A stretch of DNA of 64,000 bases, from contig NC_068971.1 in assembly GCF_016808095.1 (NCBI RefSeq), forward strand, positions 47,428,131-47,492,130. The letters run 5' to 3'. The notes under the pieces are model-generated. The model was not told where the DNA came from. It did no database searches and was given only the letters and a program-made list of their open reading frames with translations. The stretch comes from Vigna angularis. Taxonomy: Eukaryota; Streptophyta; Magnoliopsida; Fabales; Fabaceae. The position numbers and the translations under genes were made by a program. Of this stretch, positions 2,290 to 54,700 are shown in pieces. Positions within the stretch are counted from its first letter, which is position 1. Each line of letters opens with the position of its first letter.

Positions 2290-2712
2290 TGTCACGCGCA
2301 TAAAGCATGACAGTGTTAAGGGGGGAGAAACGGTTACACCTAGTGGCCACGTGTCAAACAAAGATGAAGGTATGGGAATGCGTAGAGGGACACGTGAGAG
2401 GAGAGGAAATACTAAATGGAGGGATTTCATTCAGGAATAGCAGTCGGTGGTATGGTCTCTCTTTCTGCAATCATTTTTCTCCAGATTCTTCTTCTCTGAT
2501 TTCAGTGTGGATAATTCTCTAAGTTCCTTTCCTTTATTCTTTTACAGGAATGGAATACATCATGGTTCAGCTGTGACTCATACAGTTTTATTTTCTGCAT
2601 TTGTCATTTTCATTGTTAGCCACGTATTACTTATATTGAGACAGCTTTATTTCTCAATAAAATTCCATTGCTCTGTTCGATTTTTATACATACCTCATTT
2701 AGCACTGTTACA
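2290..2712 (+). repeat. 5' LTR of the Reina-like element
   Basis: This 423-bp direct repeat pairs with 7212-7634. It starts TG and ends CA, directly after the 5' copy of the AAGTG target duplication. It contains a purine tract (2318-2330) that looks like a polypurine primer yet lies inside the LTR. An AATAAA-like signal occurs near 2658 in the presumed U3/R part. Confidence 0.95.
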
Positions 2713-2728
2713 TTGGTGCTTTCATTGA
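2713..2728 (+). promoter_or_regulatory. Putative primer-binding site
   Basis: TTGGTGCTTTCATTGA directly follows the 5' LTR, where the tRNA primer anneals for minus-strand synthesis. It is not the initiator-methionine type (TGGTATCAGAGC) used by the other retrotransposon in this window. I cannot name the tRNA from sequence alone. Confidence 0.6.
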
Positions 2729-2733
2729 CTTCC

Positions 2734-19899: not shown

Positions 19900-20657
19900 A
19901 TGGCTTCTGGAGACTTCATTAATAAATCCCTCTCACTTCCTCCATACCCCGAGGTAAGTAGCTTCTAACCACTTAGCATTAATCTCTTTCTTTTCTAATA
20001 ATAAAGTTACCTTGTCAAATTTCCTACCCCGTAATTCTTCAAAAATTACCCTTTCATTTTTCAATCTTCTGCTCATAATTAGGGTTAATCCCACCGTACT
20101 ATTTTCGAATTTGGATTATTTTCTTTGTAAAGGAACAAAGTTAGGAAGACTGTTTGAATTTTTTATTTCAGATGATTTTGGAGGCAGTTGAGGCACTGAA
20201 TGACGGGAATGGTTCGAATAAAACATCAATTTCGAAGTACATAGAATCTAGGTACGGTGTGTTGCCTCCGGGCCACAAGGTACTGCTGAATGTACACCTT
20301 GCAAAAATGAGGGACACTGGGGTGCTTGACTTTTGGAAGAATAACTACACCAAGTGTGACCCAAACGCGCCGCCGCGGCGTGGCCGTGGCAGGCCACCTA
20401 AGCCCAAGGAACTTCTGCCTCCGGACACTGTCCTGTCACCGCCCAGGCCCAGGGGCCGCCCCCCAAAGGGCCCAAGTGACATGCAAAGGCCACCCAAAGC
20501 CACCGCTGGGAGTGGCAGACCCAGAGGCCGGCCTAGGAAGATGGCGCGGCCAGCCGGAGGATTTGGGGAACCATCGGCTTCCTCGTTGAAGCCCAGCGCA
20601 AGGCCCAGAGGAAGGCCTCCGAAAGTGAAGCCCGGATTGATAGAAAATAATGCTTAG
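19900..20657 (+). CDS. HMGA / HMG-Y-related AT-hook protein with linker-histone domain
   Basis: This is a nuclear architectural protein that binds AT-rich DNA in the minor groove. Exon 1 (19900-19953) encodes 18 aa ending LPPYPE. The 218-bp GT-AG intron is followed by exon 2 (20172-20657), which begins MILEAVEALN, for 179 aa in all. Residues about 13-80 form the H1/H5 globular winged-helix domain (SISKYIESRYG...LLNVHLAKMRDTG). Four AT-hooks follow with core RGRP or PRGRP at about residues 88-95, 110-117, 134-141 and 162-169, separated by Pro/Lys-rich linkers. This matches plant HMGA proteins (one H1/H5 domain plus four AT-hooks). The hook region is much more GC-rich than its surroundings. The ATG at 19900 is chosen because exon 1 supplies the conserved PPYPEMI junction. 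Confidence 0.93.
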
Positions 20658-26626: not shown

Positions 26627-27325
26627 ACGTCCTTGTAGTGAGCGTTCGTCCTTGTAGTGAGCGTTCGTCCTTGTAGTGAGCGTTCGTCCTTGTAGTGAGC
26701 GTTCGTCCTTGTAGTGAGCGTTCGTCCTTGTAGTGAGCGTTCGTCCTTGGTGTAGTGAGCGTTCGTCCTTGGCGTAGTGAGCGTTCGTCCTTGGCGTAGT
26801 GAGCGTTCGTCCTTGGCGTAGTGAGCGTTCGTCCTTGGCGTAGTGAGCGTTCGTCCTTGGCGTAGTGAGCGTTCGTCCTTGTAGTGAGCGTTCGTCCTTG
26901 TAGTGAGCGTTCGTCCTTGTAGTGAGCGTTCGTCCTTGTAGTGAGCGTTCGTCCTTGTAGTGAGCGTTCGTCCTTGTTGTGAGCGTTCGTCCTTGGTGTA
27001 GTGAGCGTTCGTCCTTGGCGTAGTGAGCGTTCGTCCTTGGCGTAGTGAGCGTTCGTCCTTGGCGTAGTGAGCGTTCGTCCTTGGCGTAGTGAGCGTTCGT
27101 CCTTGGCGTTGTGAGCGTTCGTCCTTGGTATTGTGAGCGTTCGTCCTTGGCCTAGTGAGCGTTCGTCCTTGGCGTAGTGAGCGTTCATCCTTGGCGTAGT
27201 GAGTGTTCGTCCTTGGCGTTGTGAGCGTTCGTCCTTGGTATTGTGAGCGTTCGTCCTTGGTGTTGTGAGCGTTCGTCCTTGGTGTTGTGAGCGTTCGGCC
27301 TTGGTTTGTGAGCGTTCGGCCTGTG
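26627..27325 (+). repeat. CGTTCGTCC minisatellite array, 19- and 22-bp units
   Basis: More than 30 consecutive copies of GAGCGTTCGTCCTTG are followed by either TAGT (19-bp unit) or GCGTAGT and variants (22-bp unit). A block of five 19-mers, a GGTGTAGT variant and a run of 22-mers is repeated with a spacing of about 246 bp (variant units near 26736 and 26982), so the array has a higher-order structure. It is extremely CpG-dense. The minus strand is open for 189 codons purely because of the repeat. Confidence 0.95.
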
Positions 27326-27644: not shown

Positions 27645-28002
27645 GTTAGAGGTGGTACATACACTATGTTATTTACTTATAACTTTGTCTGTCTTTTGAG
27701 CATTTTTGCTAGTCTCACGCGTGAGACTGAGATTCGAGTGTCACCTTCTTCTGCGCGAGGAGGTGAATGTCTCGCCCAATGACTTCGGCTCGTGTTGAGT
27801 ATAGTGCATCGTTACGCGTAGTATCGATGTTTTTACTCGTTAGTCCTTGAGGAGTCGGGGAGATAGGTCTGAAGTCGCGATGGATGACGGCTCGGGTGTA
27901 AGGACCGTATATTAGAAAAGAAAATTTGGTGGAGGTGGGCCCCATGTGGGCAGCTGAGCATGTGAAGTGGTGGGAGCATCCTTTGATGTTTGGCATGGTA
28001 GG

Positions 28003-28133
28003 GAAGAGCTTCACGGGACAAGTTGAAGAGCTTCACGGGACAAGTTGAAGAGCTTCACGGGACAAGTTGAAGAGCTTCACGGGACAAGTTGAAGAGCTTC
28101 ACGGGACAAGTTGAAGAGCTTCACGGGACAACT
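28003..28133 (+). repeat. Six tandem copies of a 22-bp unit in the LTR
   Basis: GAAGAGCTTCACGGGACAAGTT is repeated six times at a 22-bp period, the last copy ending in a variant. The same array with the same copy number occurs in the 3' LTR at 34233-34363. That agrees with recent reverse transcription from one template. Confidence 0.93.
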
Positions 28134-29201
28134 GTTGAAGAGGTGGGGGAGAAATTTTATATGGGCAGCAGGCTTAAGAGTCTCACCACCTGGAAGCATG
28201 CTGGACGCTGTTGTGCATGGAACGCTTCTCCTCTTTGCTGGCTGCACCTTGCGTGAACCGTGAGCAAGGTGATGATCAACTTCTCCTTACAGCCGTGACA
28301 GTCTGAGCTTGGGTGTGGCAGCTGCTGCTTGCTTCATAAGGAAGGAACATAAAGGAATGAGCAAGAAGAGAGGTTGGAAGGAGGAAAAGCCGAGATGAAG
28401 GAAGAGAGTTTGAAAGTTGCTGGGAGAGAAGAAGTGAAGAACTTTGGAGTTGGAAGGAGATCCAGACGCTTGTATTTCTAGGATCAAGATTGCTAGGATG
28501 TCTTCAAGAGGTAAGGGGAGCTAGATATTTTGCGTTTTGATTGTTGAATTATACTATGTTTGGTGCAAATCTGAGAATTTTGGGAGTGAAAATGGGTTTC
28601 TGCGTTTTCTGGAAAAACCTGTGATTCTGCATAATCTGCAGAATCGCGTTCGTCCAATTTGGTCTCAAATTGAACGTTCGTCCAACTTGACGAATTGAAC
28701 GTTCGTCCCGCCAAATTATCTGAGCGTTCGTCTAGTTTTTGAGGACGCTCGTCCAGCTTGACCTTGTGAACGTTCGGTATTTTCTGAACGTTCGATTTTT
28801 ATATGTATTTTGATGAGCGTTCGTCCGAAACGGCGACGTTCGTCCACGTTGTTGAGTGAGAGTTCGTGCATAAGAGTGTAGTGTTCGTTCATGCGTTAGA
28901 ATTATTTATACGTTCGTCCTCGGTTCAGCGCGTTCGTCCAAAGTGTTCGGATTAGTGTTCGTCCAAGGGTTCGGCTTAGCGTTCGTCTCGTCTTAGCGTT
29001 CGTCCCGTAGCGTTCGTCCTTCCTTTGAGCGCTCGTCCAAACGAGTGTTGTTTTCGATTCTGAGCGTTCGGCCTTTTTGTAAAATGACGTTCGTCCGTTT
29101 AGAGCCACATTGGACGTTCGTCCAAATGCCTAAGAACGTTCGTCCAGACGTTGAACGTTCGTTTTTATGGAATGAAAATAAGATGACTGAGAGTGGTGTC
29201 T

Positions 29202-29236
29202 GGTAATCGTTTACAACACCCCTGTAAACGATTACC
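29202..29236. other. Perfect 14-bp inverted repeat in the LTR
   Basis: GGTAATCGTTTACA, a 7-nt spacer (ACACCCC), then the exact reverse complement TGTAAACGATTACC. It is present identically in the 3' LTR (35432-35466). It lies between two blocks of CGTTCGTCC motifs and could form a hairpin in RNA or a cruciform or dimer-binding site in DNA. Confidence 0.9.
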
Positions 29237-30355
29237 CGAGAGAATTAGCCAATTTGTACAGAAAGTCCAACACAGGTACTCAGTTAGATGAACAGGGGTC
29301 ACCATTGGAAAAACCATGAGTGTAGGCACTTCTGCACCTTCCCGGAGACGTTGTACGTTCGTTCTGGACGGTCAGTGAGCGTTCGACAGTGAGCGATCGT
29401 TCTTCCCCGTGAGCGTTCGTCCTTCCCAGTGATCGTTCGTCCAGTTTGAGCGTTCGTCCAGAGAGCGTTCGTCCTTGATTTCATCTGTGAGCGCTCGTCC
29501 ATTCGTCCAAACCGAGCGTTCGTCCAAAATGATCAGCATGGAGCGTTCGTCCAAAGTGTAGCGTTCGTCCTTTCGGATTAGTGTAGTGTTCGTCCTTAAG
29601 TAACCAGTATGGGCGTCCGTCCTTAAATGAATGGTTGAGCGTTCGTCCGAATGGTTGAGCGGTCGTCCGAATTGTTGAGCGTTCGTCCTGGTGAGTGTAA
29701 CGTTCGGTCAGGAGGTTTAATCTTTGCGCGTTCGTCCAACTGTGCGCTCGTCCGCGTTCGGCAGCGTTCGTCCAGACTGCTCAGCAGTGAGCGTTTGTCC
29801 AGTGACTTTCGTTCTAGAATGGGTTAAGTGAATAGTGGTCTTCCAAATAGTATTTTACAAATATGTTGGTTTACCATGTTTGGATGACTTTTGCATGTTG
29901 TATGAGTGGGTGGAATTATGGTTTAATGAATATGCTCTAATTGTTCTTTTGTACGAATCTAAGTATGATAACATTGAATTTAACTGTTCTATCTGTACAA
30001 CATGTTTTTACATCTAGCTCACCCTTGCCTTGTTTTTGTTATGTACTGTCTGGGTATGTTTCTTTGGCGATGATCATCCACTTGGATGGGAGCAGATGTT
30101 GTCGCGGAGTTTCCCTTGGAGCAAGAGCTGGAGGTTACCGATGTCGCAGGATAGTCTTCTTAGAATTTATTGATTGAACACTTGTATTGTTCAATCCTTT
30201 CAAATGTTCAAGTTTGAATTTTCAGTTTCTTTTATTTGGATGACTGTAATTTATTACATTTAATTACACGTCATATTCCGACTGTTCTCTATATTTGGAT
30301 GTTAACGTCTTTATTATATAATATTGGTTATTATATAATCGGGACGTTACATTAA

Positions 30356-30367
30356 TGGTATCAGAGC
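30356..30367 (+). promoter_or_regulatory. Primer-binding site, initiator methionine tRNA type
   Basis: TGGTATCAGAGC lies four bases after the 5' LTR end. It complements the 3' end of plant initiator tRNA-Met, the usual primer of many plant LTR retrotransposons. Confidence 0.93.
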
Positions 30368-30492
30368 AGTTCTTCCTTAGAAACCTGTAGGTTGTGGGTG
30401 CGATTCGTTTGTGATTATGTACTTTGGTCTCGGGTTGGAAGTTGTGTTGGTTTGAGTCAGGCTAATGGTCTTTCTTTCTGTATGAACAGAAG

Positions 30493-31036
30493 ATGGTACC
30501 TACTTCTTCTCCTCCTTCGTCCCAGGGAGTTGATCCGTCTGACTCTAATCAGATGCTGAATGCGGTGTTCCAAGCGTTGCAAGAACAGAATGCTGCATTG
30601 GTAGAGTAAAATACCATAACCCTGCATAATCTAGAAGCCGCAAGGGTATTTGCCGAGAACGCGAGAGTAACATCTGAGAACACTTAAAGACAATTCATTA
30701 AAGTGATTGACTAGTGGCAGGACCGTTCAGGGTGTTTTCTCTTCAGTTATTCTGGTCCAAGAGTGGAATTTGGAAAGCTTTCTGCAACATCATTCAGCCC
30801 GGTTTGATGGGAAGTGCAGTTCGAATGAAGCTGATCAATGGTTAAGGGACATTGAGAGAATTTGTAGTGCTAAGAAATGTCCAGATGAGAACGAGGTATC
30901 ATATGCTGAGTACTTCCGTACAGTGTAAGGTATGACATGGAGATTGAATTCCTTCAGTTAATACCGGGAAATATGTCGTGACTGAGTATGCAGACAGGCT
31001 TGAGCACTTGCTCCGATTGTACACCATGACTACGGT
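30493..31036 (+). pseudogene. Broken gag of the young element
   Basis: It opens with ATG at 30493, just after a splice-acceptor-like TATGAACAG (30482-30490). The first in-frame stop comes after 39 codons (TAA at 30607-30609), with further stops and frame changes beyond. In other frames gag-like stretches remain: residues resembling FLQHHSARFDG, EADQWLRDIERI and later YADRLEHLLRLYTM, as in Ty3/gypsy retrotransposon gag domains. Similarity ends at an A-tract (31040-31057). No pol follows. Confidence 0.85.
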
Positions 31037-31039
31037 TAT

Positions 31040-31057
31040 AAAAAAAAAAAAAAAAAA
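31040..31057 (+). repeat. A-tract at the gag breakpoint
   Basis: About 18 consecutive A residues lie exactly where gag similarity ends and the segment containing the homeobox gene begins. A second A-tract (33483-33503) lies near the other end of that segment. Confidence 0.85.
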
Positions 31058-31895
31058 TTTTGTTATCATTATGAGTTTAATTCTCCCTGTCTTAACCTTG
31101 ATGTGCCATGTTTTGGTCTTTTGCTCGTGTTTAAGCCTAAACACTGTTTAAACCGTTTTTGTCATCAAGTTAATGCTTTAATCCTGTCGTGTTCAACCTT
31201 AAACATTCATTCATTTCATTAACATGTATCATTTTTGGGTTATCAACCTCTATGTGTCTAAACCAGATTTCGGCTCCCGTTCTTATGTCTTTTGTTTTCA
31301 ATGTCATTGTGAGCCAATCTAATTTTTCAGTTTCACCCAGTTCAGGTTGTGTTAAACGTATGTGTTCTGTGTTTTCAAAGTTCATTAATACTTTGTTATT
31401 TTGCCTTAATGTGAAATTCTATTGATTAATTTAGAGTCTGCAAACACAAAGGTTGTTTTATGTTTGGGGCAAATTAGTGTTTTGTTTACCTCATCGAGTA
31501 TTGAAGTATCGTTAAAATCTTGATAAATTTTTAGACATAATTTTCATGCGTTTCAAACTCATTGATAACTTATTATGTTTTTCGTTTGGGCCAGATAAAA
31601 ATAAAATAGTTGAGAATAACTCTGAGTCAAATTTCAAAATTTCGTAATAAATTAATTTATCTGAATTTATGAACAAGTACATATATATGTATATTTTAAA
31701 TAAATACAATAAAAAAATTACAAACAGGTGGTTGAGTTTCTGTGAGGTTTTTCTCTTCTGATACTCTTGAGTTTGGTAAGACGTTAACCTGGAAATAAAT
31801 CGTTAGAAAAATATATAATTGGCAGGGCTGATAATAAAGATAATAATCAGCAAACTAGCATGGCAGATAAATATTACAATGCTTAATTAAAATAA

Positions 31896-32024
31896 AGATG
31901 TTCTAGAGTCGATCATAAGTGATCGTTAAATATTACAGTCCATAAAATACGCAAATAAGGCAAATAAACAAAAGCAAATAAAGGATGTTCGGGATTCGAT
32001 CACTCGTGATCATTAAGTTACAGA
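31896..32024. repeat. Two copies of a roughly 43-bp unit with a palindromic core
   Basis: Two similar units (31896-31939 and 31981-32024) each contain an imperfect palindrome: CGATCATAAGTGATCG at about 31910 and CGATCACTCGTGATCA at about 31997. They lie just downstream of the stop codon of the antisense WOX-like gene and could act in its 3' UTR or as DNA sites. Confidence 0.6.
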
Positions 32025-32037
32025 TAAAAATAAAAAT

Positions 32038-32600
32038 TTAACGGAAAAATTCTCGAACGGGTTGTGGTGGCCTAAGGGAGAGCTCCGTCGAGGGAGCTCT
32101 GGTTCGGAATGCGAGAGGCATGGGTTGAGGGATTTTTCGTTCGTCCCTGTCATCGTCGATGATGATAGGAACGGGGAACAAATCCAGCAGCCTTGGCGCC
32201 TTCATAATTACCCAGCCGTATTCTTCAAACAAAAAAAAAAAATAAATAAAATTTGTGTCAATAATAGAAGGGGAAAAATAAAATAAAATAAATAAAAATA
32301 AAAATAGTGGTAATTAGGGTTCTTACCATACATGTACAGCGGCAGCTGAGAAAATACGGTGCCAGTGGGGTCTAATTCCGCTTGCCAGCGCCTGATCCGG
32401 TTACCATGATTGTTGAACCAGCAGTGTACATTATATTCACTGACTTCTCCGAAGGCCCTGAGTCGAGATGCAATCTCGGCGACTTGGGCTCTGCTGGGAT
32501 GTGTGACCCCGTGGTTGAAGATATTGGCCATCATTTTGACCTGATCATCAGTAGGTTTCCACCGCTGACTGCTGAACCTCTCCATCTCCATCTCACTCAT
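32038..32600 (-). CDS. WUSCHEL-type (WOX) homeodomain protein inside a retrotransposon
   Basis: The predicted 152-aa protein is encoded antisense to the element. Coding exons on the minus strand are 32600-32327 and 32222-32038, joined across a 104-bp GT-AG intron; both exons stay open. Residues about 12-73 form a WUS-type homeodomain, from RWKPTDDQ through PSRAQVAEIASRLRAFG to NVHCWFNNHGNR. It has the extended loops of WOX proteins and keeps W, F and N of the recognition helix. The NH after WFx recalls the WUS clade (QNHKAR) more than WOX13 (QNRRAR). The C-terminus has an ELSLRPP segment that faintly resembles an EAR repression motif. The ATG at 32600 is the first Met; the frame continues upstream only into untranslated leader. 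Host WOX genes specify stem-cell and organ-founder identity. Whether this copy is expressed or functional is unknown. Confidence 0.82.
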
Positions 32601-33420
32601 CCTTCCTTTCAAAGTGTTTCTAAAGCATAAAAATAAGGAAATAAAAAGAATAAAACAAAAATCGTCAGTGTTTTCTTTATTTGTTTTGGTTACTTTTAAG
32701 TTTACTTCGTCCAGGCGGTCTTTGTTGTTTCGGTGTCTAGTCTCTGGTCTGTTTCACGGTCCTCGCAAATGTTCCTAAACGGATCTACGTCCAAGTTTGT
32801 TTATGTCCATTTCGTACATACAAATAAATTTCCTCTTTTTAAGTTTTCTGTTTTTATGGGGTACGTGGCGTTGTTCTACCCGATTGTCTCTGCCATACCC
32901 TCAATCGAGGGGAGATTAACGTCTGGTTTCCAGCCGATATACCCCTTATCTTTGTTAAGGCAGTGTGTTCTTAGATTTTAGTTATTAAATGGAAAATAGA
33001 AGAAGAGGAAAGTAAACGCAGGAGCAGAAGTGAAAATAACAAGCGGAAAGTAAAGAAGAAAGCAGAATGTAAGTGCGAGTAATAAAAGCTCAGAAAACAA
33101 AAAGAAAAAGGAAAGTACATGAAAGGAAGCAGAAAGAAGAAAGGAAAGAAAAGAAGTAAGAAGTAAAGGAGAAGGAGAAGCTGGGTAAAGGAAAGAAAGA
33201 AATAAGAGAAAAGAAATACTTACTCGAGGCGGGGCAAAGCCTTGGAACTTGCAGATTTGAAGCTTGCCGGAAGGCTCTCCGATCTACCACGCTCAGTCGT
33301 TCAGATCTCGCAAAGTTTTCACACTCAAAGCTCTCAGTGCTCAGATCTCTCTCTCAGATGCTCTCAGATCTCAACGTTTCGAAATGTCGCCCAACGCGGC
33401 TAGCACCTCGTTTTATAGCC
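32601..33420 (-). promoter_or_regulatory. Promoter, leader exon and leader intron of the WOX-like gene
   Basis: Read on the minus strand, a TATA box (GGCTATAAAACG, TATAAAA at 33417-33411) precedes a leader rich in GAGATCTGAG-type sequence. A donor CGA|GTAAGTAT (exon end 33224) opens a roughly 600-nt intron. The acceptor ATGCTTTAG (AG at 32621-32620) leaves 19 nt of leader before the ATG at 32600. TATA box, leader and matching splice sites suggest a whole gene with its own promoter rather than an exon fragment. The transcription start (about 33385) is inferred. Confidence 0.6.
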
Positions 33421-33482
33421 AAGGAACCTCACTGTGTCCACAGTTCCGGTCATGCATACCGGAGTCTTCAATAGTATCGGTT

Positions 33483-33503
33483 AAAAAAAAAAAAAAAAAA
33501 AAA
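33483..33503 (+). repeat. A-tract near the far end of the homeobox segment
   Basis: About 21 consecutive A residues. With the A-tract at 31040-31057 it brackets the roughly 2.4-kb segment holding the WOX-like gene. Confidence 0.85.
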
Positions 33504-33644
33504 GATTTTTGTAGCTTGCGATTTTTGCCACATTGTGAGAGTATGAGACATTCAATTAGAGAAGATCTCTTGCTATGTGAGTAAGTGAAAAATGACCTGA
33601 TTTTGGTGTGAGATGTGATATGTATGTTGGCATAGAATTGTCAC

Positions 33645-34020
33645 CTTGGCTGAGCGGTGGGAACTGCCCTGATAAGCTCACTAGATGAGTGGTGGGAGTT
33701 GCCCTGATAAACTTTTGAGTGGTGGGAGTTGCCCTGATAAGCTCTTTGAGCAGTGGGAACTGCCCTGATAAGCTCACTAGAGTAGTGGTGGGAGTTGCTC
33801 TGATAAGCTCTTTGAGCAGTGGGAACTGCCCTGATAAGCTCACTAGATGAGTAGTGGGAGTTGCCCTGATAAACTTTTGAGTGGTGGGAGTTGCCCTGAT
33901 AAGCTCTTTGAGCAGTGGGAACTGCCCTGATAAGCTCACTAGAGTAGTGGTGGGAGTTGCTCTGATAAGCTCTTTGAGCGGTGGGAACTGCCCGGATAAG
34001 TTTGTTATATGAGTAGTGGG
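33645..34020 (+). repeat. Tandem repeats in the 3' untranslated part of the young element
   Basis: Units of about 30-36 bp, GTGGGAGTTGCCCTGATAA and GTGGGAACTGCCCTGATAA with alternating linkers (ACTTTTGA, GCTCTTTGAGCA, GCTCACTAGA), repeat about eleven times. A longer unit containing several of them is itself duplicated. Tandem repeats between coding region and 3' LTR are known in plant Ty3/gypsy elements. Confidence 0.9.
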
Positions 34021-34118
34021 ATGGGAACTCTACCCAAGAGTTAGAGGACAAGATGAGAGAGACATATCTCAACTTGTTTTGGTAAGCTTAATTTTCGAGG
34101 ACGAAAATTGTTGTTGTT

Positions 34119-34126
34119 GGGGAGAA
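34119..34126 (+). promoter_or_regulatory. Polypurine tract
   Basis: GGGGAGAA directly precedes the TG of the 3' LTR and would prime plus-strand synthesis. A little upstream is TTCGAGGACGAAAA (about 34093-34106), an inverted-repeat motif common before the 3' LTR in Tekay/Del-type elements. Confidence 0.88.
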
Positions 34127-36581
34127 TGTAAGGACCGTATATTAGAAAAGAAAATTTGGTGGAGGTGGGCCCCATGTGGGCAGCTGAGCATGTGAAGTGG
34201 TGGGAGCATCCTTTGATGTTTGGCATGGTAGGGAAGAGCTTCACGGGACAAGTTGAAGAGCTTCACGGGACAAGTTGAAGAGCTTCACGGGACAAGTTGA
34301 AGAGCTTCACGGGACAAGTTGAAGAGCTTCACGGGACAAGTTGAAGAGCTTCACGGGACAACTGTTGAAGAGGTGGGGGAGAAATTTTATATGGGCAGCA
34401 GGCTTAAGAGTCTCACCACCTGGAAGCATGCTGGACGCTGTTGTGCATGGAACGCTTCTCCTCTTTGCTGGCTGCACCTTGCGTGAACCGTGAGCAAGGT
34501 GATGATCAACTTCTCCTTACAGCCGTGACAGTCTGAGCTTGGGTGTGGCAGCTGCTGCTTGCTTCATAAGGAAGGAACATAAAGGAATGAGCAAGAAGAG
34601 AGGTTGGAAGGAGGAAAAGCCGAGATGAAGGAAGAGAGTTTGAAAGTTGCTGGGAGAGAAGAAGTGAAGAACTTTGGAGTTGGAAGGAGATCCAGACGCT
34701 TGTATTTCTAGGATCAAGATTGCTAGGATGTCTTCAAGAGGTAAGGGGAGCTAGATATTTTGCGTTTTGATTGTTGAATTATACTATGTTTGGTGCAAAT
34801 CTGAGAATTTTGGGAGTGAAAATGGGTTTCTGCGTTTTCTGGAAAAACCTGTGATTCTGCATAATCTGCAGAATCGCGTTCGTCCAATTTGGTCTCAAAT
34901 TGAACGTTCGTCCAACTTGACGAATTGAACGTTCGTCCCGCCAAATTATCTGAGCGTTCGTCTAGTTTTTGAGGACGCTCGTCCAGCTTGACCTTGTGAA
35001 CGTTCGATATTTTCTGAACGTTCGATTTTTATATGTATTTTGATGAGCGTTCGTCCGAAACGGCGACGTTCGTCCACGTTGTTGAGTGAGAGTTCGTGCA
35101 TAAGAGTGTAGTGTTCGTTCATGCGTTAGAATTATTTATACGTTCGTCCTCGGTTCAGCGCGTTCGTCCAAAGTGTTCGGATTAGTGTTCGTCCAAGGGT
35201 TCGGCTTAGCGTTCGTCTCGTCTTAGCGTTCGTCCCGTAGCGTTCGTCCTTCCTTTGAGCGCTCGTCCAAACGAGTGTTGTTTTCGATTCTGAGCGTTCG
35301 GCCTTTTTGTAAAATGACGTTCGTCCGTTTAGAGCCACATTGGACGTTCGTCCAAATGCCTAAGAACGTTCGTCCAGACGTTGAACGTTCGTTTTTATGG
35401 AATGAAAATAAGATGACTGAGAGTGGTGTCTGGTAATCGTTTACAACACCCCTGTAAACGATTACCCGAGAGAATTAGCCAATTTGTACAGAAAGTCCAA
35501 CACAGGTACTCAGTTAGATGAACAGGGGTCACCATTGGAAAAACCATGAGTGTAGGCACTTCTGCACCTTCCCGGAGACGTTGTACGTTCGTTCTGGACG
35601 GTCAGTGAGCGTTCGACAGTGAGCGATCGTTCTTCCCCGTGAGCGTTCGTCCTTCCCAGTGATCGTTCGTCCAGTTTGAGCGTTCGTCCAGAGAGCGTTC
35701 GTCCTTGATTTCATCTGTGAGCGCTCGTCCATTCGTCCAAACCGAGTGTTCGTCCAAAATGATCAGCATGGAGCGTTCGTCCAAAGTGTAGCGTTCGTCC
35801 TTTCGGATTAGTATAGTGTTCGTCCTTAAGTAACCAGTATGGGCGTCCGTCCTTAAATGAATGGTTGAGCGTTCGTCCGAATGGTTGAGCGGTCGTCCGA
35901 ATTGTTGAGCGTTCGTCCTGGTGAGTGTAACGTTCGGTCAGGAGGTTTAATCTTTGCGCGTTCGTCCAACTGTGCGCTCGTCCGCGTTCGGCAGCGTTCG
36001 TCCAGACTGCTCAGCAGTGAGCGTTTGTCCAGTGACTTTCGTTCTAGAATGGGTTAAGTGAATAGTGGTCTTCCAAATAGTATTTTACAAATATGTTGGT
36101 TTACCATGTTTGGATGACTTTTGCATGTTGTATGAGTGGGTGGAATTATGGTTTAATGAATATGCTCTAATTGTTCTTTTGTACGAATCTAAGTATGATA
36201 ACATTGAATTTAACTGTTCTATCTGTACAACATGTTTTTACATCTAGCTCACCCTTGCCTTGTTTTTGTTATGTACTGTCTGGGTATGTTTCTTTGGCGA
36301 TGATCATCCACTTGGATGGGAGCAGATGTTGTCGCGGAGTTTCCCTTGGAGCAAGAGCTGGAGGTTACCGATGTCGCAGGATAGTCTTCTTAGAATTTAT
36401 TGATTGAACACTTGTATTGTTCAATCCTTTCAAATGTTCAAGTTTGAATTTTCAGTTTCTTTTATTTGGATGACTGTAATTTATTACATTTAATTACACG
36501 TCATATTCCGACTGTTCTCTATATTTGGATGTTAACGTCTTTATTATATAATATTGGTTATTATATAATCGGGACGTTACA
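34127..36581 (+). repeat. 3' LTR of the young element
   Basis: 2455 bp, three mismatches to the 5' LTR, all internal motifs in the same place (offset 6230 bp). Followed directly by the TCGGG target duplication and then by the rest of the interrupted solo LTR. Confidence 0.95.
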
Positions 36582-36586
36582 TCGGG

Positions 36587-37766
36587 TCGCCTGTTATTGA
36601 GAGCAGGTTATGACGACGAATTACAAGTAAACGACATCAGTTTATGAAAGACTAGTGTGCAGTGTCATGTGAGTCGATTTATCATGGGAATTGTTATAGT
36701 ATTTGTAGTGGGTTTATAGTGTGATAATTCTGGTTATTCATCTTGCATGTTGTGGCTGTGGTTTCTAACCGTGATGGTCGTACGGATACGAGAGAGATGG
36801 TAGTGTAGATAAAGTTGGATTTGGAGTACTTCTGCGAAAGAGACGGGGAGTAAAACTTGTTGAGTCTATAGGTAGTAATGAGCGTTCTTATTAGTGACGT
36901 TCGGTCTTGGTGTTAATTAATTTCAGGTAGCGAGCGTTATTAGATAACAGTTGATCTTGATGTTAGTGGATCTGAGGTAGCTAGCGTCCGATCTTAATTT
37001 GGTAACCTAAGGTTTAGTTTGATTACGTTCAGTCAATACTGAGGTGTTCAACAGAGTACTCTAGGCGTTTAACCCAGACTCAAGCGTTCCTTATTATAGT
37101 GTTCTGTCTAGTAGCGATGGTTCTCAGGGAATGATCTTTATTGGTGATGTTGCTTTGAGGTTGTAATCATTTATAGGGAGTGACCGGCTTTGATAGTCGT
37201 TGAAGTATCGATCGATTGATAAATAGTGATTAGTCGTGATGATACATGATTCAGGAAATGATCATTCATAGGTAGTGCTCGGGTCGGATGATGCCTGTCT
37301 CGGGTAAAGATCATTAATAGTTAGTGGTTGTACGTAGGGAACATCCGGTCTCGATGAGGTTACTCTCAGATAGAATTAAATTCAGTAAAGTGATCAATTA
37401 AGTGTTCGTCCGAATGGTACTTAATCTGTGGTGTGCGAGATTTGATCTTTGAGCAATCGTTCGAATAGTGTTCGAAATAATAGTAATTGTTTTAGTAGAG
37501 TACACTGTCTTAACGTGAAGTCTATGTACTTGATCTTAATTAGCGTTTGATCTTTTGGTATTCGACCTAATGGTATTCGGTATAATAGCGTTTGATGCTC
37601 AGTTTCTAGCTTAAGTGATCAATCTTAATGTTCGTGTAAACAGTATCCGATGTAATATAAGTTCGTTGTTTTATCGTTTGATTCAGTAATGTTATGTATT
37701 ATTACAACATTTAAGTTTTTTGAAAAATTTATTTGTTTTAGGGTGATTTTTTTTTGGGATGTTACA
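36587..37766 (+). repeat. Right part of the interrupted solo LTR
   Basis: After the TCGGG duplication the older solo LTR resumes. It holds decayed GTTCGGTC/GTTCGTCC motifs (for example near 36900 and 37400) and ends GGGATGTTACA. It is followed by ACCAT, the older element's target duplication. Confidence 0.85.
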
Positions 37767-48539: not shown

Positions 48540-51500
48540 TCATTCATGATTTAGTTCTACCGTTTTACTCTTCTTTAGGAGTTTTTCAACAACCTCATCC
48601 CAGTTTGATCTTCTATCACTGGATTTTGATTGGGTACTTGACACGTTATTGTTTCCACTATCCGATGCTTCTTCACCTTCATTCTTCTCCGCCGTTTCTT
48701 CCTCTGCAGAGTCCACTGCATGAGGCACGTTTAAGCTAACAGCCCTTTCCAAAGCATCTCTATGTTCTTTCTCTATGGTCTTCAACCTCTCGAACTTTTG
48801 TACCGTTGGAGGCTCTGTCACAGTTTCAGAGCTCTTCCCCTTCATCAACTAAAACAGAATACCCAAAACAGTCACAATTTCGTTACGTGCACAAAACAAC
48901 GACAAATTTTCAACACAACTTTGATACATTGATCACATCATTACTGATAACATAAACATAAACCCGAAAACTTGAAATAACACACACAACAGAACCAAGT
49001 TTTCTATTCCGAGTCTTTTTCCTAGTTCGAATTACAAAACATCATTCGAAAAAAAAAAACAGAGAATCAATTGGTGGGTAATTCCTTACTTGCAAGGCTT
49101 TCTCGGCCTCCCTTTCAATCCAAATAATTCCATGATCTGATGTTGCATTACACGACAAGACGATATGCTCAAATCTTCCATCAACAGGAATAGCAGTCCT
49201 CACTTCAGGAGGAAATCTCCCACATCTGTGTTCCCCAAAGCAATAATAAATTTCATTATCAGGAAAAACATATTACTATGTAGCAGTAATTCAGGACAAG
49301 ATTTGACGATGAATAAGATTTCTCAGTCACACTCAATGAACTATTCGTTTGTCAGCCTACATCAATCATGCTACCAGCAAACTATATTAAACAAAGTCCT
49401 GTCAGCACTTTGGTCTTATTCTACATGCTCACCTTTCTAGCAATTAAAACAATTACAATAATACAATCTATGGCGATGAATTTTTAGATTGTTTAAATCA
49501 AATTCCCCTGTTTATGGTTCACAAGAATAACACAACTAGAGAAGACATAATTTTACTTTTGCACCAGACCAAGCAAATTAAACAAAGATTATTATGAATA
49601 TTCCCACAATATTCATGCTGGTATTGGAGCTTACTATGAAGGGAACAATTTGCGATTGAATACCTGCAAAATTTTCTCTCAACAATATGGTACATTCGTC
49701 CAGGCGCATAAAGTCTCCTTGGATCTCTAAGCTTTCTACCCTCAGGTATGAAAGTGTCTCTCAGGCAAACCAACAACAATAAGCAGGGCAAACTGTTTAA
49801 ATCATCAAGGCCTGGTTTAAGAGATCATCGTGATATTTCACCATGCTCCATAATAAAACAAATAAAAACAAAAAACCAAAGGCAAACTTGAAAGTTGAAA
49901 TCCAAATGCGCCATGTCCATACTACAGAAGGGGCTGTACCAACCAGAATATAGATTTGAATATATCTTCCAACGGAGTGGGCGTTCTTGGCAAGAAATCA
50001 TCCTGCACCAAAATATAAAAAACTTCAACTTTTACGATGTTAACCAGAATCATCATCATACAATTGAATAAATGCACAAGATTAGTAGCACTAAGCAGTT
50101 TGATGGGGAAAAAGAAAAAAAATTCTAACTGTTCCGTTTAAAAAACGAAGGGATGGGAAATAATTATTTCACTCTTGTGTATTATTAACAGGTCATACAT
50201 TAGGTACATGTTGCCTTACATATTTTTGCAATTTAATTTTATTCACACATCGCCCTATACACATCATTTCAATCAATAAATCACAACTTTCTAAAAACTA
50301 CTACTCTCCAGAAACTACTACTATCTTTCAAACAGTACATGATGTAATACAATATTTAAAGTAACCCTTGAATATATATCCATCGGTTTACTCCATAAGC
50401 TGATGTATGTCAGCATAATTCAGAAACTTTGAAGAATTTTTTTAATATTTAAAGTAATATTAAACATGATTTCTAACACTTATAGGACTACCCAGGTAAT
50501 TTACTTTACTATTAGGATCGTTCAGGGAGAAGGTAACACGTGAAGGATAAAACTGATAGTTTACTCAAACATAAACAAACTACAGCGACACCATGGTCGG
50601 GCTGAAAAAAGTCTTACAGAATACGTTAAAACGAAAACATGAATAATTACAAAAATATTCTGAAAATATATGAAGAAAAAGTAAAATCAACATACACTGT
50701 TTTCATTATTTTTTATATTATTGTAAACAATTTTAAGAAGTAAAAAATCAGAAAAAAAAACCGTCTTCTCAGTACCCAAACGAGATTGAAAATACGAAAA
50801 ACTAAGACAATAAGTACTGAGTAATAATGAAGTCTTATTCTTTAGTTGAATTATCATGTCTCTAATGGTAAATAGGTACTATAATCAATAACACCTGGTG
50901 GCACTACACATATAATTTCTAACGAGTGTCATAAGACTACAAACGCTGGGAGTAAAATCCCACCGAAAAGTTAAAAATTTTCCCTTAAAAACAACACTGG
51001 TCTAAACAAATACGTGACAATGCAGCGCACAAACAAAAAAAATTATTGAGGAGGTATGAAGTTGTAACCTGCAAAACAACAGAATGAATGACATTGGCAT
51101 ACTTGACAGCCAAATTGAGGGACATACACCTGGCAGGAGCAACCGCGTAACACCGAATCTTCTCCTTAGGAATCCCACCCAAACCATCCCTATGGTTCAC
51201 AACCAAAATCGTCAACAACGACACCACCCCAGAACCCAAAGAGTGTCCCGTGAACACCATATCATATTCGGAACCGTTCTCCAACCACAATCGCTTCAGT
51301 GTCTCCGACTCCCTATTCAGCAGCCACTGCGCCGACTTCAGCAGCCCACGGTGTACGTACCCACCGTCGAACATCTGCTGCCCCAACCGGTTATCAAGTA
51401 GGACTTTGTAGTCACTCTCATTGACCAGGTTGAGGCCACGCACCGCCAGCACGATCTCCTTGTGCTCGTGGTCGAGGTAGATGAGGTAGGGCGGCGCGTG

Positions 51501-51773
51501 TCCGAGCGTGTCCTCGTAGGTCACGCGCTTCTCGAGCCAGTCCGGGTTCAGGCGGTGACCGGGGGCGGGCTTGTAGTACTGGGGATTTCGGAGATCGGGG
51601 TCGTAGTTGGCGAGGATGAGGCGGCAGACACGCGGCACCGGGTCAAACTCGTCAGCGGTGGCGGCTGGCCACGTGGCGCTGTCGTAGTTTCCAACGTAGG
51701 TGCAGCGCTTCCAGAGCCACCTAGCGCAGCCCAGCACGAAGACGCACTCCACCACCCCGCATGAGGCCGACAT
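48540..51773 (-). CDS. Class-3 lipase, calmodulin-binding heat-shock protein type
   Basis: An alpha/beta-hydrolase predicted to act on mono- or diacylglycerols. Minus-strand exons: 51773-51069, 50002-49944, 49792-49664, 49225-49090 and 48848-48540, all GT-AG, giving 1338 nt and 445 aa. Exon 1 contains the N-terminal plant lipase region and most of the lipase-3 fold, with nucleophile motif GHSLGSG (Ser about 178). Exon 2 holds DDFLPRTPTPLEDIF and exon 3 VCLRDTF...DPRRLYAPGRMYHIVERK. Exon 4 continues with PVDGRFEHIVLS and DHGIIWIE. The C-terminus is acidic and probably coiled (ERLKTIEKEHRDALERA) and low-complexity. Length and layout match the plant proteins annotated as calmodulin-binding heat-shock protein. 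Exon 1 is strikingly GC-rich (CpG-rich codons) against the later exons. Substrate and calmodulin binding are inferred from family. Confidence 0.92.
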
Positions 51774-54700
51774 GGATGGGACTAGGGGGGTTTGATGTAA
51801 TGGGTGTCTCGAGAGGATTGAAAATTGGGGACTTTTGGAGTAGGTGCTGAAAGGTGAGAGTTTGCGTGTGATGGTGTATCAGAGAGAAAAGAAGAAGAAG
51901 AAGCTTAATTGGGGTTTACTTCTCCCACTAATACCTTTGATTATTCCATGTATGCACAATGGAAGATTCGCTTGAGGCTCTACAGAACATAGCATATAGA
52001 TGCAGAGAGAGGAACAAGAGACTGAGATTATGACATTTTCACACCTTCTCTTTTTCTCTACCATAGTCACTTTCCTCTTTAAGGTTCTTTTAAATTGTCC
52101 AATTTAAGCCTTAAATACCAACTTTCCATTATTTCAAATTCAGATGTTAACATATTTTAATTTTAATTTCTATTATTTTGGATATAAAGACTACAAGAAT
52201 TACTAAAACTACATCTACAAGAAATAAATTCTAACTGGAAAATAAAAAATATAATGAATATGTAAGTATACAAATTAAACAAATAATTGAATCATCGATA
52301 TTTTCATATCAAATATTGAAAACTAATCATTCAAAACCTTAAAATCCATATAAATAATATGTTTCTTTAATATATCCAGACATGAAGGTTGGGTTCATGA
52401 TCATGATTATTTGTAAACTATTTTACTTTATTAGCACTTTTTAAAATAATTGATGAAGAATCATAATGTATTGCTTGGAGTAATAATTGATATTTTTGGC
52501 TTTGTTTTCCTGTCATATTTGTTAGAATATATGTGAATGCATAAGCTTCGAGGTTGAATATTAGCATTGGATTTTATTTTTAAGAGGCTAACTTTTCATT
52601 TTATTTAAAAGATTTTCCTTTGTGTGATAAATTATTTGAAAGAAAAAACAATGTTTTGTTAAAGGATGTGACTAACCAAAGTTTTGAGAGTGATTTGAGG
52701 ATGTGATGGTATTTGAGTGTTCTTAAATGATTAAACTTAATTGAATTATTAATTACGTGATGAATGTGCAACTACTTTTCTTTCAATGCATGCATGGTTT
52801 GGACTCTGCACTCAGCATCCGTGAAAAGTCTCCTCTGTTTACCAATATGTTTTCTTTCTTTCTTCTTTTTTTTTAATTCTTTATATAGTCTTTTTTTTTT
52901 TGTGTTTTTATAAATGAAAATTAAGTGCAAATTTGTTTAATTTTGATAAAGAAGATAAAAATGAAAAACTACGTCAAGTTTAAGAAAAACTTCCTCCATA
53001 TTTATTAGGAGACACCTCTTAAGAAAATTATTGGTACAAGACGTTTCATAATTTCTATACAGTTGCATATTTATTTATTTTATTAATTTTTCATTTTTAA
53101 GATATTTTATAATTTTTATATGATTATATATAAGTATTGTTTAATAAATAGTAAAAGTAAATTTTTAAAATTTATAATAGTGATAACTAATTTACTATAT
53201 TAGTAGAATTTTAAAAAACTAACTAAATTATTTATTTTTATTAATTTGTGTGACTATGTTAAAATTAAGCATCAAACGGGTAATTTTGGTTCGGAAGAGA
53301 AATTGAAAAATGATAAATCTTTTCTTTGAAAAGGAAAACAAACTTCTTTACTGCTATTTTTCTCTCAAATAAAGAATATAAGCTTGTCTTTATATCAATA
53401 ACAAAAGAAATTAAGGTTAATTGTGTTTAAAACTGTTTATGTGTACGACAAAAAGATAAAGATTATATATTTTGGTCAATAATTTCATTTCTAGACAAAT
53501 TAAATACATAATGTTGAAAAAAATATAAACATATATCAACAATATGTATACTAATGTTAAAATAAAAATAATTTGCATTTACATTTCTTAAAATAATGCT
53601 AGTTTGCAAATAGAAATTCACTCCACTTTTATAAAACAATATCTCCATCTCCTCTAACCCTTTTTTTTATAAGATATTAGCATTCCATGTATTTTTTGGA
53701 AATAACATTCTCCTTTATTATACTTTTAATAAAGTTTATACTCACTTCTATTATTTATTAAAAAATATTATATCAACTAAAACTGAATAAAAAAATTTGA
53801 AAGTAAAAAAATTTATAGTTTTTAAATATAAATTAAAAAATTGTATGAATGTCCTTTGAAAAAATAGAACTGTAACTGTAATTTAAAAAATAAAAATAAA
53901 AGAAAGTAAATATATTTTGAAATTTAAGCAAAGATTAGTGTAATTTAAAATAATTAAAAATAAATAAATATTTTAATGTTTAAAATTAAGAACATATATT
54001 ATAAAAATAATTTGTTCTTTATTTATGTAGAGAAAATGAAATTCTTTACTTTTTTTTTATCACAAGTTTAGTTAGATTAAAATTTCCTTTCCAATAAATA
54101 ATTTTAAGATGTTTATGTTGTTTACATGCGGGAGAGTTAATTGATACAATAGTATATCAAGATTAACTTATAAAAAAAATAGATTAAGATATTTTCTCCA
54201 ATCATTTAGAGATATTTATGTTATTTGCATGGAGGAGATTGAATTAACTAGTTATATTAAGTTTAGTTTATCAAAATTTTAAAGGTTAAATTCTTTTCGA
54301 GGTTCTATTTTGGTTTTCATCTCAAATGGATAATTCATTTGTTTTTTTGTTGTCAATTATGTGTCTATTAGTGAACACAATTAGACCTTTGTTGTTAAAT
54401 TGTTTAGCATTAAAAATACATTGATGTGATTTTTTTAAATGACATAACAAAGTGATGAAATTTTAGGAGGAATACTAAAATGAATTTTTGTATTTTAAAT
54501 ATTACAAAAATCCTAAAATTTAATTCAAATCAAATTGGGGATGTTTTCATTGTAGTTATATTGTACAAAATTAGGGTTCTCTGATAGGATTTAGGGTTCT
54601 ATCATACAAATTGTGGATTGATTAAGTGAAATTGGGGATTGATTGAAAGAAATTAAGGTTCAGTGAAGAGATTTAGGTGTTTGTCGTCATCTTTCAAACT

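What the first reader, a model, noticed from the sequence alone, without database searches (positions are those of the whole stretch)
32038..33420. A complete WUSCHEL-type homeobox gene carried in antisense by a young retrotransposon
Between the paired LTRs of the 27897-36581 element lies a minus-strand gene with TATA box, leader exon, leader intron, two coding exons and an intact 152-aa frame containing a WOX homeodomain. Antisense placement explains how introns survive reverse transcription, since sense splicing does not remove them. Extra antisense ORFs between pol and 3' LTR are known in some plant Ty3/gypsy lineages, but I know of none that encodes a WUS-type homeodomain. Repeated transposition of such a gene could scatter copies of a stem-cell regulator.
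Basis: partly seen in the sequence, partly recalled or inferred. Interest (0 to 1): 0.9.

Follow-up and report, generated by a model that had tools for sequence, protein, structure and literature searches.

The report
Stem-cell-type gene carried by retrotransposons
In adzuki bean, LTR retrotransposons carry, backwards relative to their own genes, an intron-containing gene for a WUSCHEL-type (plant stem-cell regulator) DNA-binding protein; its protein sequence is preserved over long divergence, so it looks like a working accessory gene of the elements rather than accidental cargo.

Summary
Confirmed and extended. The window lies in a Vigna angularis assembly. A complete LTR element (27897-36581; LTRs 99.88% identical, TSD TCGGG, gag remnant, no pol) carries on its minus strand a WOX gene with two coding exons (152 aa). 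Homeodomain E = 3.7e-8; closest solved structures are WUSCHEL and STENOFOLIA; the tail has WUS-box-like and EAR-like motifs. A genome search scored 150 of 619 candidates: all 150 match the homeodomain exon at 82-100% identity, 149 without a stop. A second, older lineage (about 39% identical, partly decayed) also lies in LTR elements. Homeodomain-exon omega is 0.15 (27 copies) and 0.13 (16 copies), falling from above 1 between the nearest copies to 0.10 and 0.04 between the most distant. Six of 40 copies of the RT of a pol-bearing locus have the gene antisense 3.3-3.6 kb downstream (0.016 expected). Best reading: an antisense accessory gene for a small WUS-like repressor, kept by selection at element level. 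Expression and target are unknown. Prior art: a 2023 meeting report mentions WOX bursts between identical LTRs in V. marina and V. riukiuensis; antisense accessory ORFs are known in Tat/Retand elements, but my eight paper searches showed none with a homeodomain.

The parts
27897..36581 (+). complete non-autonomous LTR retrotransposon
27892..27896 (.). target site duplication TCGGG, left copy
36582..36586 (.). target site duplication TCGGG, right copy
27897..30351 (+). 5' LTR (2455 bp)
   Evidence: 3 mismatches to the 3' LTR
30356..30367 (+). primer binding site TGGTATCAGAGC (initiator-Met type, recalled)
30616..31028 (+). broken gag remnant
   Evidence: pieces matching the gag of L012 (55-63% identity) and L031
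31884..31949 (-). non-coding block 3' of the gene with a short inverted repeat, conserved between lineages A and B
32038..32222 (-). coding exon 2 of the WOX gene (WUS-box-like LLDLFPVP, acidic stretch, EAR-like TELSLRP)
   Evidence: motif names recalled
32223..32326 (-). predicted intron, GT-AG
   Evidence: intron at the matching place in A and B copies
32327..32600 (-). coding exon 1 of the WOX gene, with the homeodomain
32620..33223 (-). predicted leader intron
   Evidence: donor and acceptor kept in 5 of 7 A-type loci; no transcript data
32851..32949 (-). conserved block with a predicted stem-loop fold, inside the leader intron
33407..33420 (-). TATA-like box of the antisense promoter (predicted)
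   Evidence: kept at up to 1 mismatch in WIN, L028, L029, L032; at 2 mismatches in L033; not found in L030, L031
34119..34126 (+). polypurine tract GGGGAGAA
34127..36581 (+). 3' LTR (2455 bp)

Best explanation
The window holds a young non-autonomous LTR retrotransposon with an antisense accessory gene (aORF-3R kind) descended from a plant WUSCHEL-related homeobox gene. SHOWN: the gene is complete, has predicted GT-AG introns, lies between near-identical LTRs, matches at 150 scored places of the genome, and its deep lineages evolve under strong amino-acid constraint. INFERRED: it is transcribed from its own antisense promoter, spliced, and makes a small nuclear repressor whose homeodomain binds DNA and whose WUS-box-like and EAR-like tail recruits TOPLESS-type co-repressors. 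The likely benefit is to the element: in meristem and germ-line-precursor cells the protein either represses or times the element's own transcription, or shifts host genes toward a state in which new insertions are inherited. The introns survive reverse transcription because the genomic RNA is the other strand. Single copies drift after insertion; lineages with a working gene persist.
For: Element anatomy. Homeodomain by profile, sequence and predicted fold. 149 of 150 scored rows have no stop in the homeodomain exon. All five pairs of LTRs at 98% or more to the window's LTR enclose the gene antisense. Exon 1 omega 0.15 (0.09-0.23) in A and 0.13 (0.08-0.20) in B; exon 2 in A 0.21 (0.11-0.36). 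Neutral simulation of exon 1 with 40 substitutions: median omega 0.73-0.87, stop in about 76%; real pairs with 35-44 differences: 0.12-0.17 and no stop. Recognition helix 3 is the most constrained part, 0.08. Intron divergence 0.21 in A against pN 0.05. Six of 40 RT copies of the pol-bearing locus have the gene antisense 3.26-3.62 kb downstream; random placement mean 0.0155, never above 1 in 2000.
Against: No transcript, protein or binding data. Exon 2 of lineage B has omega 0.71 (0.44-1.12). Between the closest copies omega is 2.66 (A) and 1.32 (B), though binning on pS inflates these. 7 of 19 B loci have a stop or frameshift in exon 1. Recalled WOX motifs are not enriched in six LTRs. Ten of 19 B loci and two of seven A loci (L030, L033) show no flanking repeat pair in the 10 kb fetched. 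Two further RT copies have a gene nearby in a position that does not fit, and 32 have none in the incomplete list. WOX-type exons of lineages C and D were not placed in elements.
Confidence: 0.62

Rival explanations
1. Passive cargo: a host WOX gene was trapped and amplified recently without function (ordinary transduction or transduplication).
For: Near copies show omega at or above 1; one subfamily has many rows with the same score, a recent burst; B exon 2 omega 0.71.
Against: Exon 1 omega 0.04-0.14 between distant copies in both lineages; neutral simulation predicts stops in about 76% at that distance, yet 149 of 150 scored rows are stop-free; A and B are saturated at synonymous sites (pS 0.80) but both keep homeodomain, intron place and tail motifs.
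Confidence: 0.1
2. Host-level selection: the plant uses the amplified WOX copies (for example in stress or meristem control), and the elements are only the vehicle.
For: The meeting report links WOX amplification to two coastal Vigna species but says its contribution to adaptation is unknown (PMC10714607). Family names and motifs are those of developmental regulators.
Against: Constraint follows lineages rather than single copies. The gene keeps a fixed antisense place behind RT in six RT copies and between LTRs, as an element gene would.
Confidence: 0.12
3. The antisense RNA, not the protein, is what matters (regulatory antisense transcript or siRNA trigger), as proposed for some aORFs-3R.
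For: Antisense transcripts with regulatory roles are discussed for such ORFs (PMC7264820). Two non-coding blocks are conserved between A and B.
Against: The constraint is on codons: pN is about a fifth of pS in exon 1 and lower than intron divergence.
Confidence: 0.06
4. The gene cassette is itself a mobile unit that inserts into different LTR elements (nested element) rather than an inherited part of one lineage.
For: The gene lies beside different gag types. Between window and L033 the aligned stretch runs only from the stop codon to the structured block (window 32034-32948).
Against: No terminal repeats or duplication of such a unit were seen; the distance to RT is nearly constant in six RT copies; fast divergence alone could erase the flanks.
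Confidence: 0.1

Closest known systems
LTR-borne WOX amplification in Vigna marina and V. riukiuensis (K. Naito, in meeting report PMC10714607; passages read)
   Same: WOX genes in many copies, mostly between identical LTRs with TSDs, in the same genus.
   Different: The passage gives no orientation, introns, motifs, selection, older lineage or pol-bearing relative, and does not name V. angularis for this; no sequences were available to test identity.
Antisense accessory ORFs (aORF-3R) of Tat/Retand elements: Grande gene23, RIRE2, Retand ORF4, pvRetro13 ORF2 (PMC7264820 parts 1-2 of 3, PMC11963269 and PMC4093653 passages)
   Same: Antisense gene on the 3' side of gag or pol, repeated in many copies, with signs of conservation; the L030 backbone is Tat-like by a second RNase H (hallmark recalled).
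   Different: Described domains are TRP28, SMC and a few others; the protein here is a WUS-type homeodomain of recognisable host origin, with predicted introns.
Canonical plant WOX proteins (WUS, WOX2, WOX5, STENOFOLIA)
   Same: WUS-type homeodomain; TLDLFP in lineage B as in a Rehmannia WOX; EAR-like end (motif recalled).
   Different: About 150 aa; a separate clade from the WOX homeodomains read from the same genome; residues at positions 50, 53 and 54 of the recognition helix differ (numbering recalled).
Bs1 and other host-gene transductions by plant LTR elements (PMC7264820)
   Same: Host-derived coding sequence inside an LTR element.
   Different: That review says such captures are usually in sense and in one or a few copies; this one is antisense and in many copies with coding constraint.

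Membership tests
WOX transcription factors | WUS-type homeodomain | tested here: met
WOX transcription factors | WUS-box TLxLFP | tested here: inconclusive
   TLDLFP in most B rows aligned; A has LLDLFP or LLNLFP, first residue changed
WOX transcription factors | groups inside a named WOX clade | tested here: inconclusive
   the WOX-like rows form their own clade (98/97); long-branch warnings in the output (earlier version)
WOX transcription factors | DNA binding and TOPLESS recruitment | not testable with these tools
   needs assays
LTR retrotransposon | paired LTRs, TSD, PBS, PPT | tested here: met
LTR retrotransposon | own gag-pol | tested here: not met
   window copy has only a broken gag: non-autonomous
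Antisense accessory ORF (aORF-3R) | opposite strand to gag/pol, on their 3' side | tested here: met
   window; L030 and RT linkage
Antisense accessory ORF (aORF-3R) | present in most copies of the element family | tested here: inconclusive
   5 of 5 window-type LTR pairs, but only 6 of 40 RT copies linked, with a gene list known to be incomplete
Antisense accessory ORF (aORF-3R) | own promoter and transcript | not testable with these tools
   predicted TATA only
Tat/Ogre-type element (L030 backbone) | second RNase H after RT-RNase H | tested here: met
   RVT_3 1.5e-19; that this marks Tat is recalled
Tat/Ogre-type element (L030 backbone) | gene lies inside its LTRs | not tested
   LTRs of L030 not fetched
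Reported Vigna WOX-LTR burst | WOX between identical LTRs with TSD in many copies | tested here: met
Reported Vigna WOX-LTR burst | same sequence family | not testable with these tools
   those sequences are not held
Neutral captured gene | omega near 1 over long distances, copies broken | tested here: not met
   near 1 only between close copies and in B exon 2

The most novel reading that the evidence does not exclude
A stem-cell-type transcription factor has become a long-lived, exchangeable accessory gene of plant LTR retrotransposons: a cassette (structured non-coding block, two-exon WOX repressor, 3' inverted repeat) has passed between at least two unrelated element backbones (chromovirus-like and Tat/Ogre-like, possibly Athila-like too), has evolved its own DNA-recognition residues, and is selected because it acts in the stem-cell or germ-line niche where inherited insertions are made.
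Probability: 0.35. Interest if true: 0.88.

Novelty: new variant of a known kind. Interest (0 to 1): 0.7.

Why it matters
Antisense accessory genes of plant retrotransposons are widespread, but their functions are unknown because most of their proteins resemble nothing characterised. Here the protein belongs to a well-studied, structurally solved family of developmental regulators, so the question of what such genes do becomes directly testable by expression, DNA-binding and co-repressor assays. It would also mean that at least 150 copies of a stem-cell-type regulator are scattered through a crop genome, and that some genes annotated as 'WUSCHEL-related homeobox' in Vigna are element genes.

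Tried and rejected
Known RNA families in the element (27800-36700): none at E up to 1. WOX motifs in LTRs: TTAATSS and TGAATGA counts in six LTRs lie near shuffled means (motifs recalled). Identity with the antisense ORF2 of pvRetro13: rejected, SMC domain and no homeobox mentioned. Passive cargo: disfavoured by omega. Alignment A1 had a wrong-frame first row and was not used.

Unanswered, so unknown: a C-type genome search, a search with the L030-type exon, the structured block as genome query, and a segment 3' of the L030 gene. The cited bioRxiv paper 2022.03.28.486085 is not held. Eight paper searches were made.

Rows dropped: exon 1 omega used 27 of 27 A and 16 of 19 B loci (L016, L023, L024 left out for stop or frameshift); exon 2 used 24 of 27 A (without L060, frameshift, and L071, L072, indels at the end) and 15 of 19 B (without L011, L016, L021, L022). 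B loci were the top Pfam scorers, and the 20 extra A copies were chosen by hand across the list. The structured-block alignment used 14 of the 19 loci with a match; L029, L031, L032 (same as or nearly the same as the window) and L011, L014 (short matches) were left out. In the tree the P0073 row had been typed with three residues missing and L045 and L053 were left out; one search repeats it with rows read from file and gives the same clade at 98/97.

Full report
WHAT IS THERE. The window is positions 47428131-47492130 of contig C2 of a 448 Mb assembly. Its contig lengths (for example 65407200, 42641100, 41033850, 36286043) are those printed beside Vigna angularis proteins, so I take the host to be adzuki bean. 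At 27897-36581 lies a complete LTR element: two 2455-bp LTRs with 3 mismatches, TSD TCGGG, PBS TGGTATCAGAGC and PPT GGGGAGAA. With recalled rates of 0.6-1.3e-8 per site and year, 3/2455 means roughly 50,000-100,000 years. The interior is 3775 bp. It has no open pol frame, only a broken gag related to the gags of loci L012 and L031.

THE GENE. On the minus strand exons 32600-32327 and 32222-32038 join to 152 aa. Residues 12-71 are a homeodomain (Pfam 3.7e-8). Among solved structures the relatives by sequence are WUSCHEL and STENOFOLIA. An AlphaFold2 model of the 94%-identical database protein P0001 has confident homeodomain helices (block means 85-96 for residues 11-70, mean over all 67.4) and a low-confidence tail; its best PDB matches are again STENOFOLIA and WUS. 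The tail carries LLDLFPVP and TELSLRP, which by eye resemble the WUS-box and EAR motifs of WOX proteins. In the second lineage the first motif is TLDLFPIP in most copies, aligned with TLDLFPIH of a Rehmannia WOX. The TATA-like box is kept in WIN, L028, L029 and L032 at one mismatch or fewer, is found in L033 only at two mismatches, and is not found in L030 or L031; donor and acceptor are kept in five of the seven A loci.

COPIES. The homeodomain exon as query gave 619 candidates, of which the tool scored 150. All 150 rows are 82-100% identical over the exon (one row starts at residue 2), 149 without a stop, on all 11 large contigs. Many rows share one score, a sign of a recent burst. Of 23 neighbouring gene pairs closer than 26 kb in the combined list, 12 lie 7.9-9.0 kb apart on the same strand, as tandem elements sharing LTRs would. 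The window's LTR as query gave 906 candidates, 40 scored. At 98% identity or more there are five LTR pairs by coordinates (window, C7, C10, C5, and a truncated one on C1), each with the gene between on the opposite strand; five further hits (C10:21554351, C5:39480075, C3:4014062, and partial ones at C10:2369331 and C10:2299254) are single. A related pair on C1 (83 and 81%) also encloses a gene, while related pairs on C2 (77%) and C4 (84%) enclose none in my incomplete list. A second lineage, B (WFQNYGYR instead of WFNNHGNR), gave 31 rows at 84-99% identity over at least 90 of 98 residues, 11 of them with a stop. In the fetched B loci, repeat pairs flank the gene in L010, L020, L022 and L024 (96.7-97.3% identical) and in L017 (91.8%, cut by the end of the locus); L013, L014, L015 and L018 show shorter or degraded pairs; the other ten of 19 show none in 10 kb. 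Of seven A loci five have pairs (99.7% or more) and two, L030 and L033, none in 10 kb.

SELECTION. NG86 on exon 1: within A (27 copies) pS 0.281, pN 0.050, omega 0.15 (bootstrap 0.09-0.23); within B (16 copies) omega 0.13 (0.08-0.20). Exon 2: A 0.21 (0.11-0.36), B 0.71 (0.44-1.12). Intron divergence is 0.21 in A and 0.18 in B. A against B is saturated at synonymous sites (pS 0.80). Neutral simulation of exon 1 with 40 substitutions gives median omega 0.73-0.87 and a stop in about 76% of replicates; five of the six real pairs compared, with 35-44 differences, have 0.12-0.17, and the sixth, with 12 differences (L064), has 1.36. By distance, omega runs from 2.66 (A) and 1.32 (B) in the closest bin down to 0.10 and 0.04 in the most distant. 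Binning on pS exaggerates the first values, but the trend is what a transposon gene shows when single copies drift and lineages with a working gene persist. Helix 3 is the most constrained part, 0.08.

ORIGIN. With 16 WOX homeodomains read from the same genome (clade names given by me from recalled sequence features), 15 WOX-like rows (types A, B, C and D, including V. radiata P0069 and V. umbellata P0072) form one clade, 98/97, apart from modern, WOX9/11 and WOX13 rows; the output warns of long branches (replacing). Types C and D were not examined for LTRs. Apart from one Rehmannia WOX, the 74 database proteins found and the 12 are named as Vigna (V. angularis, V. umbellata, V. radiata) as far as the names are printed; so are the 63. 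The search has limited sensitivity and annotators often mask such genes, so this is not proof of absence elsewhere.

BACKBONES. Locus L030 has an open pol with RT, RNase H, a second RNase H and integrase on the element strand, ending about 0.9 kb before the antisense gene. Upstream lie a DUF7745 ORF and a gag-like ORF. That is Tat/Ogre-type by recalled hallmarks. Of 40 genomic copies of this RT segment, six (two of them one duplication) have a listed gene copy antisense 3.26-3.62 kb downstream; random placement gives 0.0155 on average and never more than 1 in 2000. Two more have a gene nearby in a place or direction that does not fit, and 32 have none among the 182 positions at hand, a list known to be incomplete. 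The window, L028, L029, L031 and L032 instead have the TGGTATCAGAGC PBS, and gag pieces of one kind (chromovirus-like by eye); L017 and L021 lie by an Athila-like gag (by eye; L021 is below Pfam's cut-off and L017 has no gag match). The LTRs of the window type, the L031/L032 type and the B type do not match each other by blastn at 1e-10. The gene tree is in keeping with these groups, but the backbones of 20 of its 27 A rows are unknown. So the gene either descends from a very old capture or has been exchanged between elements; I cannot decide.

CONSERVED NON-CODING BLOCKS. Outside the exons, two stretches of the interior aligned between the window and B loci repeatedly. One, at 32851-32949, folds into a long stem with an inner hairpin: in 14 sequences 97.3% of cells pair and six cells have double changes; percentage paired, double-change cells and covariation score exceed all 500 shuffles, but the number of double-change pairs (227 of 500) and of pair types (476 of 500) do not, and related sequences can pass such shuffles without structure. 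The other, at 31884-31949, holds a short inverted repeat. No Rfam family matches. Whether the first is a promoter, a leader structure or an element RNA signal is unknown.

KNOWN OR NEW. A 2023 meeting report states that V. marina and V. riukiuensis have accumulated WOX copies (over 1000 in the latter), mostly between identical LTRs with TSDs (PMC10714607, passages read). So the phenomenon in outline is in print. Antisense accessory ORFs are well described in Tat/Retand elements (PMC7264820, parts 1-2 of 3; PMC11963269 and PMC4093653, passages), with TRP28, SMC and other domains; 'homeo' occurs in neither of the latter two. In eight paper searches I saw no account of antisense orientation, introns, selection, motifs, the older lineage or the pol-bearing relative. 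I therefore call it a new variant of a known kind.

HOW IT PROBABLY WORKS. Shown: presence, orientation, copy number, coding constraint, linkage to element parts. Inferred: antisense promoter activity, splicing, nuclear repressor function through the tail motifs, and benefit to the element in stem-cell or germ-line precursor cells. The lack of enrichment of recalled WOX motifs in LTRs gives no support to simple self-binding, but the changed recognition residues mean that the true target motif is unknown.

Noticed in passing
window 2620-7359 (+): Open 1580-aa gag-pol frame of another Ty3-type element, with gag, protease, RT, RNase H, integrase and chromodomain matches; no link to the WOX gene seen.
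   Followed up: partly
window 32851-32949 (-) and homologous places in 18 other fetched loci: About 95 nt of non-coding sequence conserved between lineages A and B, with a predicted stem-loop fold and some compensatory changes; no Rfam match.
   Followed up: partly
window 26634-27322: Minisatellite of 22-bp units (32.9 copies, 95% matches) just left of the element; by eye its unit resembles motifs inside the element's LTR.
   Followed up: no
window 33651-34021: Tandem repeats of about 66, 96 and 162 bp between the gene's promoter and the 3' LTR; tandem arrays in this place are also reported for Retand elements (PMC11963269).
   Followed up: no
G000 C6:1947086-1971848 and C9:14399967-14416215: Gene copies at regular spacings of about 8.25 and 8.12 kb on one strand, suggesting tandem element arrays.
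   Followed up: partly
window 20145-20654 (+), 50988-51878 (-), 60401-61720 (-): Ordinary host-type coding stretches: linker histone, class 3 lipase, glycosyl hydrolase 17 with X8 domain.
   Followed up: no
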